Source: Nannobrachium achirus
Taxonomy: Eukaryota > Chordata > Actinopteri > Myctophiformes > Myctophidae
DNA length: 64,000 bases
Assembly: GCA_963921795.1 (NCBI GenBank)
Contig: OY997658.1
Location: 31,950,933 to 32,014,932, forward strand
Direction of reading: 5' to 3'
Positions 2,492 through 59,068 of the stretch are shown in pieces. The notes below the pieces were generated by a model that searched no databases, was not told the DNA's origin, and worked only from the letters and a program-made list of their open reading frames with translations. Numbering within the stretch: the stretch's first letter is position 1; every line of letters begins with the position of its first letter. A program made the translations under genes and the position numbers.

Positions 2492-2574
2492 ATAGTGGAA
2501 ATAGCCGATCCACAAGCTCACAACGCGTCGCGATGCGACGCGTTGTGAGCTTGTAGATCTGCTATTTCCACTAT
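2492..2574 (+). repeat. Hairpin module copy 1 (full length, 83 bp)
   Basis: The arms start ATAGTGGAAATAGCCGATC and end GATCTGCTATTTCCACTAT around a 3-nt centre (GAT). The stem is nearly perfect. The outer arm differs from copies at 4097 and 41035 by paired changes (GTGGAAA/TTTCCAC instead of GTGAAAA/TTTTCAC). It lies between the LINE and the first RTTN exon. Confidence 0.9.
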
Positions 2575-2747
2575 TTTTGACTTTTGTTTTAAATAATATG
2601 AACATTTTTCAACATGGAAACGATTATGACGATTATGAAAAATCACGATTATGTCAAAAAAAAAATCACGATTAGACGATTATGTAATAATTGTGACAGC
2701 CCTACCTGCGTGTGTATAATGACTTCCTTCCTGGGTGTGAATGGCAG

Positions 2748-2853
2748 AGTTTTGAGAGGAGGTCATCCCAGGATCCTCTGAAGAGGCTGACAGCCAGGGC
2801 TCTGATGGCTGTGCTTGCCTGCAGCCGCCCTGCTCAGAACCACGCTGCCAAGG
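2748..2853 (+). CDS. rttn: RTTN exon 1 of window
   Basis: The acceptor is GAATGGCAG and the donor AAGG|GTAAGC. The peptide begins [18 protein letters not shown] and ends AQNHAAK. It ends in phase 1; the trailing G joins CT of the next exon to give Ala. A hAT MITE starts only 20 bp after the donor. Confidence 0.85.
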
Positions 2854-5800
2854 GTAAGCTCTAGTCTCTAGTCCAGGGGTCTTCAACAGGGGGTCCGGGA
2901 CCCCTAGGGGGTCCTCAGAGTTACTACAGGGGGTCCTCCAAATCTTTGTGTGATAGAAGGTTTTTTCTCCTTTTTTTAAATTATGCAATTATATATCCAT
3001 ATCCATATATGCATATTCTGTGAACTTTAGCCAAAAATACCTGATCTACAAGCTCACAACGCCTCGCAGCGCGAGCCGTTGTGAGCTTGTAGATCAGGTA
3101 TTTTTGGCAAAGAGGTTTGGTGTAGAGGGGAAAAAGAGCAGACTAAGTACAGAGTGAAAGGTCAAGTTCATTAAGTATTGACGGTTCAAGTGTTTAAATA
3201 TCTGAAAACACAAATTGACAGGAATCCAAAATACACTGATGATTGTGCTGTCAAACGATGAAACTATACTATATATAATCTATGATAAGGTTGTGGGGGT
3301 CCCTGCTTCATCTCTCTCTCAACTAAGGGGTCCCTGGCCTGAAAACGTTGAAGACTCCTGCTCTAGTCAGTTGTCCGGATTTAAAATGAAACAAACACAG
3401 AACTGAAAGTTCCTATGATTGTCCGCTAGTTGCGCTGTTCTGGTACCATGAAGCAACATGTTCTTCATTCATTTCCCACAAACTTTTACATTTGATTTTC
3501 TTACCTTAATAAACATTGTCATAAGCACTTTATGGTTCCTGTCGCTAATTTAAAGCCTCGTTTCAATCACCATGATATGCGTTTTGTGAAAATATAGTCC
3601 AATTTATGTTATAATTGATGTTAAAGCAGGGTATGTTTTGCAGGAGGGGTTTGTGATCGTAGGCTTGTGATGGTTCTTCTTTGTGTGCTTTATTTTTGGC
3701 AAGCTCAACACCACATTCTCCCAAGTATCCGTGCGGTTGCACGTGACCGTTGGCAGCCAATAGCATTCGAGATGGTACCATTTCTACCAATGAACGTTGA
3801 TTTCTACAATGATGGCGGCACCCGTACAAGGGCCAAAAAAAGCTTAATTTTCGCCGCATAGAAACCGATGGCTTCCCACCGTCCATATTTTTTAAAGTCT
3901 ATGGTCCGGCCCCATTCATACTTCGCCGCACGATGGTGTCTTGCGGCGAGGACATTTTGAAGTTATCGCGGATGCGCGATGTGTTGCGAGCCTGTAGGTT
4001 CTCAGTGCACGACGGAGCATAACGTTGTTGTCTTGTGGTAACTTTGTACATCCAAAACCTTCCTTTTTTTGTTAGAATTTTGAAAACGATTTAAAATAGT
4101 GAAAATAGCCGATCTACAAGCACACAACGCCCGAGGCGTTGTGTGCTTGTAGATCTGCTATTTTCACTACTTTTGAGCGACACTTTTGTATGATGAAGTA
4201 GTAGGGCTTTAATTTACAAAAAAAGAACATACACATTTTAACTTGGAGATACAAGGTTTTTGGCTGACAGTGACGATAAATTAGGCTTCGCTCTCTTTTC
4301 TCTCTGCCCTATATACTGTACCTAATGTTTAGTGCCCGGGCCAGCTTCTCACTCCACTGGACTGTAGAAGAAATGTGTTCATTTTGAGCCCTAGATTGCT
4401 CAAGGCATTTTACAAACCATTCTGATGCATACTGTACTTTGGCTATTGCATTATTGTCTCCACCAGCCGAAGGCTGAGGGAGAGTATGTTTTCCCCTCCG
4501 TCCGTCCGTCCGTCCGTCCGTGCGTGCGTCCGTCCGTGCGTGCGTCCGTCCGTGCGTCCGTGCGTCCTCGCAGTTTGTGAGCAGCTAATCTCAGTCACCG
4601 TTGGCCCGATCGCTGCCAAACTGAGCACACACACTCCCTGGATGCTAATTCAGAACCTCTGTCCCACATTTTTTAAATCAGCCTCATGGTGGCGCTATAA
4701 CAGGCCGATTTGTGTGGCCTGGTGGAGACCTGTGCTCGGAAGAGCACTGCTTCTAGTTATTAGTGTGGTTTCCCCTGTAGGGCAACCAGACTATTGTCTG
4801 ACTTTATTCCATCTTCATCGTATCCTAAGTAAACCTTTTTTTGCCACGCTACTCCTCCCACAATTTTTGGTGGCACGCACTTGGGCCATATGTCAAATTG
4901 ACCGCCTTCATCGGGACACGGGACAAGAGATACGTTATATAGTTTCATTTATATAAAGTTATCCGCAAATTTATTTTCTCCATTGACTTTGATTAAAAAT
5001 TAAACGTTTCCCAAATATGGAGATGGGTGACATCATCATGTCTGACATCATAGAACACATGAGACTGACACAGTATGTCCATATATGGGCTGGCTTAATA
5101 TTGATGACATCAGGGATCTCCATATATGGGCATAAAAGGGACAAGGACTGACACAGAGATCTCCATATATGGCCATTCATTTATTAGTGAATTAATTCTC
5201 CCCATTGACTTGAAAGGGGAAAATTCAAATGGTAAGACGAAATTCATTTGAGAAATTCTCGTCACGGCAACCACACTTGCAACTTCCACTTGCATCATTC
5301 TAGTTACTAGAAGCTGGGCCGCCCTTCGGGCGGCCCAGCGTCTAGTCGGCGACCTGGCCAACTCGGAACAATGTAAATAGGGAATGAATGCCCCGCCCTT
5401 TAATGCAAACCCCATTATACCTGTTTTCATAGGACCCGTTTTGACCATTTGTCTGCCTGTGTCCATTTTTGCCCATATATGGAGATATCTGTATCTGTCT
5501 GTCGGTGTCCATTTTATGTCCATATATGGAGATCACTGCAGTTATAGTTCTGGGTCCATTTTATGCCCATATATGCCCATATATGGAGATATCTGTCTAT
5601 CTGCATCCATTTTATGCCCATATATGGAGATCTCTGTATCTGTCTGTCTGTGTCCCTTTTATGCCCGTATATGGAGATCTTTGTGATTCTGCATCCATTG
5701 TATGCCCATATATGCCATATATGGAGATATCTGTTTATCTGCGTCCATTTTATGCCCATATATGAGATTTCTGTCGCTTTTTCAAACAATCGTGGGTCGG

Positions 5801-58480: not shown

Positions 58481-58662
58481 ATGGCTTGCCTCTCTCTCTC
58501 CTTCAGATATGTGTGAGGCTGGGCTGGCTGTAGCCTGGGACGGCTTCCAATTTCGGGCTTTTGATCCGGTCGGGAGCGGATGGTATCCTACGTCATTTTG
58601 TATTCAAAACGGACTACAGTTTGGCAGGAAACACCAAACCGGAAACAGTTTTAACCCCTACT

Positions 58663-58693
58663 TGCGCATGCGCTAACGACTTGCGCATGCGCT
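58663..58693. promoter_or_regulatory. Two perfect NRF1-like palindromes
   Basis: TTGCGCATGCGC occurs at 58663-58674 and 58682-58693 with a 19-bp period. TGCGCATGCGC fits the NRF1 consensus. The setting is a repeat related to 55395-55500, so function is doubtful. Confidence 0.4.
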
Positions 58694-59023
58694 AACTGAG
58701 TTGAAACTGTTTCCGTTTAGTAAGCGAAGACCAGGCTTTCCCCCAGCGGAAAGCCTGGTGACGCGAGGTTAGTCTGGCTGAGGGAGACCACGGCAGCCAT
58801 TAAATTGCTTTGCTAATGTAACGTTCGATCAGTGACAGGTTGGAAGCAGAGGCTGTGTGAAGGCTTGGAACCTGTCTGCAACCTTGGGAGTTAATCTGAA
58901 TGACATTTTGTTTTGTTTTTCCTGATGCACTCAAAAGTTATCAGAAATGTATGTCGTTGCTGTCGGGTGGAACACTTGTAAGTCCAAAACTATTATTTTT
59001 GTAATATTTTAAAAACAATTTAA

Positions 59024-59068
59024 AATTGTGAAAATATGTGAACTTGTAGATCTGCTATTTTCACTATA
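59024..59068 (+). repeat. Hairpin module, internally deleted copy
   Basis: ATTGTGAAAATA is joined directly to TGTGAACTTGTAGATCTGCT and ATTTTCACTAT. A further left half copy (AAAATACTAGATCTACAAGC) is at about 59284. GTCGTTGCTGTCGGGTGGAA of family B is upstream at 58952. Confidence 0.7.

What the first reader, a model, noticed from the sequence alone, without database searches (positions are those of the whole stretch)
2492..59068. A dispersed 45-83 bp hairpin module carried by at least eight unrelated mobile-element types
Near-complete copies are at 2492, 3030, 4097, 6262, 9993, 12700, 16631, 20006, 20463, 20805, 28164, 32752, 35807, 36588, 37985, 41035, 52514 and 57501, with degenerate or half copies near 54660, 57950, 58326, 59024 and 59284. 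The constant tips are AATAGCmGATCTACAAGC and the complement. Host elements have different termini and 8-bp target duplications: CAGGGGTCTTCAAC, GTCGTTGTCGGGTGG, TAGGGGTGTGTA, CAGGCACGTGCA, CAGGGGTGTCGC, CGGTGGTTCTCAACC, TAGGGCATTCAC, TAGGGATGGGACG. Shared descent of all hosts is unlikely. The hairpin may be a separate parasitic unit that targets transposons, or a module selected for a common role (transposition, DNA structure or small RNA). I do not recognise it from known families.
Basis: partly seen in the sequence, partly recalled or inferred. Interest (0 to 1): 0.87.

Follow-up and report, generated by a model that had tools for sequence, protein, structure and literature searches.

The report
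Shared hairpin core in fish transposons
One roughly 85-base mirror-image DNA hairpin sits inside many otherwise unrelated small "jumping" DNA elements in this fish-like genome, probably carried from family to family as a passenger when one element lands inside another; its job, if it has one, is not known.

Summary
The tip motif occurs 37 times against 0.10 expected. Every listed position carries a full, broken or half hairpin. The hairpin is genome-wide: 48 places, merged by eye, in twenty 10-kb stretches, roughly 250 per Mb, or about 4e5 in 1.66 Gb by extrapolation.

The "eight hosts" mix two levels. Some carriers are small units with their own ends: TTAA units (CCACTTGAACCC, CCCATTTAGGCC) and a TCGTCGTTGTCGGG unit. 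Several of these lie nested inside 8-bp-duplication hAT elements. Other hAT families hold the hairpin directly. Between eight groups, no flank comparison exceeds the shuffle maximum. Simple common descent of hosts is therefore not supported. Independent mobility is not shown either: in one family, 1 of 20 fetched hairpin-less copies is a clean empty site and 18 keep arm bases.

Outer arms differ between families yet still pair within each copy (p about 1e-4). Arm-to-arm template switching could do this; so could selection.

Most likely it is an old palindromic passenger domain of non-autonomous DNA transposons, passed on by nesting. How it entered the directly carrying hAT families is not shown. 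Many decisive whole-genome queries did not complete.

The parts
2492..2574 (+). Hairpin, family E (hAT TAGGGCTGTCAC); right end of host at about 2704; a retro-like insertion lies just left of the hairpin
2874..3360 (+). hAT element (CAGGGGTCTTCAAC, TSD CTCTAGTC) holding a TTAA-type unit (right end near 3182-3197) with hairpin 3027-3111
4093..4173 (+). Hairpin in a B unit (TCGTCGTTGTCGGG-type ends, about 4019-4281)
6258..6338 (+). Duplicate of the 4093 hairpin within a 2.0-kb 99.2% duplication
8604..10418 (+). hAT element G1 (TAGGGGTGTG, TSD ATAGATAG), very young; hairpin 9989-10065 about 350 bp from its right end
12699..12773 (+). Degenerate hairpin next to a hAT-like end (reads CAGTGGTTCCCAAAC on the other strand; by eye)
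16590..16723 (+). TTAA-type unit TTAACCACTTGAACCC...GGTTCAAGTGGTTAA with hairpin 16628-16686
19999..20084 (+). Hairpin, family F variant (GACCTCCAAG), hAT CAGGYACGTGCAC host
20447..20535 (+). Weak, half-degraded hairpin; its flank recurs elsewhere only at 74-90% identity
20797..20891 (+). Hairpin in a B unit (20764-21001)
28158..28242 (+). Hairpin of the D type (inner arm CAGCGCGGCA); a possible partner TTAA end lies at 27765
32645..32911 (-). B unit with hairpin 32748-32836
35542..35996 (-). hAT-A with TTAA-type unit and partly deleted hairpin 35798-35888
36454..36864 (+). hAT C (CGGTGGTTCTCAACC, TSD AGATAGAG) with hairpin 36585-36663
37967..38119 (+). TTAA-type A unit with shortened hairpin 37982-38034
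41032..41110 (+). Hairpin in a partial C element that lies within an outer element with TAGGGCATTCAC ends
52509..52586 (+). Degenerate hairpin in a B unit
54480..54830 (-). hAT-A copy whose hairpin lost its centre and keeps only the tips
57394..57661 (-). B unit with hairpin 57497-57585
57969..58025 (-). Half hairpin and TTAA unit end (TTAACCACTTAAACCC), apparently inside a hAT (by eye)
58335..58364 (-). Half hairpin, family J, inside an element with TAGGGATGGGACG ends
59023..59068 (+). Half hairpin, B-type flanks
59229..59415 (+). A-like TTAA unit with one arm (59280-59304)

Best explanation
The hairpin is an old palindromic core (about 2 x 40 bases and a 3-5 base loop) of non-autonomous DNA transposons. 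It does not move by itself. It is copied by whatever transposase moves its carrier, and passes between families mainly by nesting: a small unit with its own ends and the hairpin in the middle (TTAA units, B units) lands in another element, usually an 8-bp-duplication hAT MITE, and the composite is then amplified. Outer arms differ between families but stay matched, most simply because template switching during DNA synthesis copies one arm onto the other; the same instability deletes the centre in many copies. Shown: the nested anatomy, abundance, family-specific pairing, ragged deletions. Inferred: that hAT families C, E, F and G1, which show no inner unit ends, received the hairpin the same way, and that no function is needed.
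For: TTAACCACTTGAACCC-like ends (up to 3 mismatches): 23 of 29 have a hairpin arm within 180 bp inside; B ends 18 of 22; G ends 5 of 6; D ends 7 of 16. The same A-type end, with TTAA before it, lies in several outer contexts. Three complete B units lie inside a hAT with CAGGGACGTGCTGG ends (L018, L023, L029). 47 of 52 paired hairpins assign to known carrier groups (library partly self-matching). Pairing of outer arms within a copy at offsets 10-18 is 0.50 against 0.30 for arms swapped between copies (15 copies, 20,000 shuffles, p 1e-4), with no excess at 19-22. Hairpin-less E copies: 18 of 20 keep at least three arm bases, 1 is clean, 1 nearly so (read by eye). A base difference between the two arms (A on one, C on the other) recurs in 17 of the 32 paired copies readable on both sides, in more than one family, which argues for one shared origin. 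Template switching that homogenises inverted-repeat arms is described in PMC8604942 and PMC3820800 (search listing with abstract beginnings only).
Against: No inner unit ends were recognised by eye around the hairpin in C, E, F or G1, so its entry there is unexplained. The recurring arm mismatch should disappear if arm-to-arm correction were frequent. Arms of E diverge less than flanks: 15 of 1287 against 90 of 2226 positions, or 3 of 781 against 17 of 1045 on the right flank outside homopolymers, which could mean selection; in G1 the difference is small (9 of 1463 against 130 of 14018). A carrier without the nested unit (hAT-A empty site) was not found among the ends in the 264-kb sample, and the genome query for it did not complete. 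One E copy (L072) does look like a clean empty site.
Confidence: 0.5

Rival explanations
1. The hairpin is itself a mobile palindromic MITE of about 80 bp with a TA target: TA|GTGAAAATAGC...GCTATTTTCAC|TA.
For: B, E and the 4093 copy are flanked by TA on both sides; one E copy (L072) is exactly the two flanks joined at a single TA; carrier groups share nothing above the shuffle maximum outside the hairpin.
Against: Families A, C, D, F, G and I lack TA on one or both sides at that place (by eye). 1 of 20 hairpin-less copies is clean and 18 show other junctions, so a chance deletion at TA explains it. 5 of 52 paired hairpins were unassigned, and none was shown to be free-standing.
Confidence: 0.17
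2. A functional module kept by selection: DNA cruciform or hairpin that helps transposition, an RNA hairpin feeding small RNAs, or a binding site.
For: Present in at least eight groups with different ends; arms that differ together between families; lower arm divergence in E; very stable fold in 6 of 6 copies.
Against: Two hairpin-less E lineages (L077/L081/L089 and L082/L087) share junctions and flank variants and so appear to have multiplied without it (by eye); no Rfam match at gathering threshold in the window; G1 arms hardly differ from flanks; arm matching has a mutational explanation.
Confidence: 0.22
3. All carriers descend from one ancestral element that had the hairpin.
For: The recurring arm mismatch points to one hairpin ancestor; A and I, and F and H, do share flanks.
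Against: Different ends and target duplications (8 bp, TTAA, AT-rich); between eight groups no flank score exceeds the shuffle maximum.
Confidence: 0.06
4. The hairpin targets existing palindromes: it inserted into the centre of small inverted repeats, which now form the family-specific outer arms.
For: Outer arms are palindromic yet differ between families; L082 and L087 have a bare small palindrome at the site.
Against: Outer arms of B, C and E resemble each other, so they look inherited; L082 and L087 share a flank variant and fit one deletion at a 2-base match.
Confidence: 0.05

Closest known systems
Angel elements of zebrafish (PMC3636048, passages read; the original 1999 teleost description is recalled, not read)
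   Same: High-copy fish DNA elements that form a stable stem-loop; compensating arm changes reported in two copies within lncRNAs
   Different: Angel is treated there as one family whose long inverted repeats make the stem; here a short hairpin is shared by many families with different ends. No sequence comparison with Angel was possible
Highly conserved domains of SINEs, and the V domain inside the MITE MER6 (PMC6887750, abstract and section 2.4 read)
   Same: A domain shared by elements with different ends, carried into a DNA transposon as a composite
   Different: Those domains belong to SINE bodies and are not described in the parts read as palindromes; here the carriers are DNA transposons
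Palindromic repeats such as Rickettsia palindromic elements or mitochondrial double-hairpin elements (recalled, no call)
   Same: Short dispersed hairpins
   Different: Those lie in genes or organelle DNA (recalled); here 47 of 52 paired hairpins of the sample lie in transposon families
hAT MITEs and TTAA (piggyBac-like) MITEs (class names recalled)
   Same: Ends and target duplications of the carriers
   Different: Membership concerns the carriers, not the hairpin

Membership tests
hAT MITEs (carriers A, C, E, F, G1) | 8-bp target duplication and short terminal inverted repeats | tested here: met
   at least one copy each:
hAT MITEs (carriers A, C, E, F, G1) | Mobilised by a hAT transposase | not tested
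   no transposase was sought for these; longest open frame in G1 is 88 codons
piggyBac-like TTAA MITEs (A and D units) | TTAA at both ends and inverted repeats starting CC | tested here: met
   window 16590-16723 and L019 8708-9292 have both ends; others have one degraded end
piggyBac-like TTAA MITEs (A and D units) | Autonomous partner with piggyBac transposase and the same ends | not tested
   PF13843 query unanswered; the name piggyBac-like rests on recall
Independent mobile hairpin or MITE | Own constant target duplication and clean empty sites | tested here: inconclusive
   TA on both sides in B and E copies only; 1 of 20 clean in E; other families not answered
Known structured RNA | Match to an Rfam model at its gathering score | tested here: not met
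   0 matches in the window
Angel | Sequence similarity to the Angel consensus | not testable with these tools
   no fish repeat library held

The most novel reading that the evidence does not exclude
A conserved palindromic domain selected across several classes of DNA transposons (8-bp, TTAA and AT-rich target types), a DNA-transposon counterpart of the conserved domains of SINEs, making roughly 2% of a vertebrate genome and helping its carriers by a route that does not depend on the transposase, for example cruciform formation or hairpin RNA.
Probability: 0.2. Interest if true: 0.87.

Novelty: new variant of a known kind. Interest (0 to 1): 0.58.

Why it matters
Repeat libraries that sort elements by their ends would split these carriers into separate families and could miss that one core runs through them. 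If only passenger nesting is at work, it is a clear case of composite MITEs reusing one core on a scale of hundreds of thousands of copies (extrapolated). If arm matching reflects selection, it raises a testable question: what does a shared internal hairpin do for elements moved by different transposases? Such palindromes are also a natural record of possible arm-to-arm template switching in a vertebrate.

Tried and rejected
Rejected: (1) Chimeric swapping of left halves at the hairpin in family E. At least 7 of 18 aligned copies have another left half. Six of them (W2492, L057, L058, L059, L068, L069) fit a retro-like insertion: its right end also occurs without the hairpin (L029a, L033a) and L057 shows the E left half further out. 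L061 has a third left half that I did not explain. (2) Ancient clean empty sites in E as the rule: the hairpin-less copies are mostly ragged deletions. (3) Prokaryotic or viral relatives: 0 viral contigs for two patterns; 14 single matches in genome contigs, fewer than the roughly 30 that I reckon for chance, not followed; no phage match. (4) Known RNA: none at gathering threshold. (5) The hairpin sequence in print: six 15- to 18-base strings, 0 papers; this searches only open-licence PMC text, and few papers print such sequences. Literature searches on palindromic MITE cores gave nothing to the point; one search failed on a term length and was reworded.

Weak points: the E copies compared were among the best-scoring genome matches to a query that includes the hairpin (17 fetched of 40 scored, of 2763 first-look candidates), so absolute divergence is biased low. 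The left-flank value (9%) probably includes misaligned ends and is not used; the p-value printed there includes it and is not quoted. In one search some library entries are the tested copies themselves. One search uses 15 copies, D twice and A and I both, so they are not 15 independent families. In one search one copy per family (11 families, J among them) with 120 bases per side was used; the highest scores between groups are D-E 27 (the 99.9% shuffle level; about 0.2 of 231 pairs would reach it by chance), B-G 25 and I-F 24, against a shuffle maximum of 31. The 48-place count was made by merging the rows by eye. Junction and duplication readings are by eye.
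Full report
OBSERVATION. The listed sites carry the hairpin or part of it. Six of six folded copies are strong hairpins. The 4093 and 6258 copies are one event, duplicated with 2.0 kb around them.

CONTEXT. Of 67 protein neighbours of an R2-like reading frame at 605-2047, the few with organism names are fish (Trematomus, Pleuronectes, Labeo and others), so I treat it as a ray-finned fish; the species is not known. 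In twenty 10-kb stretches (two beside the window, two more on the same contig C21, sixteen on C1 to C16), model R1 finds 96 rows at E<=0.01, which I merge by eye to 48 places, in 17 of 20 stretches. The sample plus window has 9,802 masked bases. That is about 250 per Mb, or some 4e5 copies if the sample is typical; at 85 bases each, about 2% of the genome. This is an extrapolation from 0.2 Mb.

CARRIERS. Aligning flanks gives these groups. A: a unit TTAA-CCACTTGAACCC...hairpin...GGTTCAAGTGG-TTAA, usually inside a hAT with CAGGGGTCTTCAAC ends. The same kind of end also lies in another hAT (family I, L026:1454) and at other places (L028, L030, window 58025 and 59229), where the opposite end was not always found. 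D: TTAA-CCCATTTAGGCC ends with a hairpin in each end region and a hAT-like stretch between them. B: TCGTCGTTGTCGGG...CCCGACAGTGACGA, with AT-rich flanks, found apart and, in L018, L023 and L029, complete inside a hAT with CAGGGACGTGCTGG ends. G: TATCCACGAGTTTCC...GGAAACTCGTGGATA. C: hAT CAGTGGTTCTCAACC. E: hAT TAGGGCTGTCAC. F and H: hAT CAGGYACGTGCAC (H joined to F by flank similarity). G1: hAT TAGGGGTGTG, 1.8 kb, 40 scored matches at 97-100% identity (of 429 candidates) and an 8-bp duplication in 13 of 13 copies printed. J: an element with TAGGGATGGGAC ends. In 264 kb, 71 of 91 hairpin loci and 47 of 52 paired hairpins assign to these groups (some library entries match themselves).

DO CARRIERS SHARE MORE THAN THE HAIRPIN? 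In 231 comparisons of 120-base flanks (11 families), scores above the shuffle maximum of 31 link only F with H, A with I, and the two ends of B; the two ends of A (26) and of G (25) come lower, as do D-E (27) and B-G (25). Eight groups remain: A/I, D, B, C, E, F/H, G, G1. J was not linked to any of them, but the window copy holds a TTAA-unit-like CCACTTAAACCC, so I do not count it.

ARMS. Constant inner arms are followed outward by arms that differ between families. Taking 15 copies (D twice), outer offsets 10-18 pair at 0.50 within a copy against 0.30 when arms are dealt anew among copies (p 1e-4); offsets 8-11 pair at 0.75 against 0.49; offsets 19-22 show nothing (0.22 against 0.25). So the palindrome has an outer edge and its two arms change together. 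Related families A and I differ in the outer arms and each still pairs (by eye, with one unpaired base in I). Two explanations are open: compensating selection, or template switching between arms, which is described as homogenising inverted repeats (PMC8604942, PMC3820800; abstract beginnings in the listing). A recurring A/C difference between arms (17 of 32 readable pairs) shows that correction is not complete and suggests that the hairpins share one asymmetric ancestor.

MOBILITY. Searching family E flanks without the hairpin found 29 matches in one piece across the junction and 11 split or one-sided ones among 40 scored; the ranking favours the former, so this is not a frequency. Of 20 such copies fetched, one (L072) is exactly the two flanks with a single TA, L090 is nearly so, and 18 keep at least three bases of one or both arms, some lacking flank as well. 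This is what palindrome deletion gives. L077/L081/L089 share one junction and flank variants, and L082/L087 share another, so hairpin-less lineages appear to have multiplied. The same test for other families did not complete.

DIVERGENCE. In 18 E copies the arms differ from the consensus at 15 of 1287 positions, the right flank at 90 of 2226. In 11 of them, without homopolymers, 3 of 781 against 17 of 1045 on the right flank. In 19 G1 copies 9 of 1463 against 130 of 14018. This is a hint of constraint or of arm-to-arm repair, in one of two families.

VERDICT. A real, extremely abundant, shared palindromic core of non-autonomous DNA transposons. Nesting of small carrier units in hAT elements is shown by anatomy, though without an empty site; that it accounts for all carriers is inferred. 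Independent mobility and function are neither shown nor excluded. I found no description of it in the searches made, which cover open-licence papers only; fish repeat libraries could not be searched.

Noticed in passing
605-2047 (+), with 5-487: Reading frames resembling an R2-type LINE protein; named relatives are fish proteins, one labelled R2DM-like. A 109-bp exact tandem copy lies at 1192-1408.
   Followed up: partly
4079-6102 and 6244-8252: Direct duplication of about 2.0 kb at 99.2% identity, with further 83-bp exact repeats around it.
   Followed up: no
8604-10418: Very young 1.8-kb hAT element without a long reading frame; 40 scored genome matches at 97-100% identity.
   Followed up: partly
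L042 (G000:C8 near 32219754): A G1 element inserted at or in a hairpin arm of what looks like a C element: its 8-bp duplication overlaps the arm (by eye).
   Followed up: no
G000:C8:49964334-50095635: Six family E matches, the last five about 21 kb apart, suggesting a tandem array of about 21-kb units.
   Followed up: no
L061 (G000:C8:50094959-50095675): A family E copy with a third, different left half before the hairpin.
   Followed up: no
62028-62732, 60903-61514, 53687-54200: Long self-complementary stretches (86%, 76% and 71% identity between arms), apart from the hairpins.
   Followed up: no
36009-36494 and 37247-37819: Reading frames with immunoglobulin-like sequence, perhaps exons of a cell-surface receptor gene (reading by eye, no search).
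   Followed up: no
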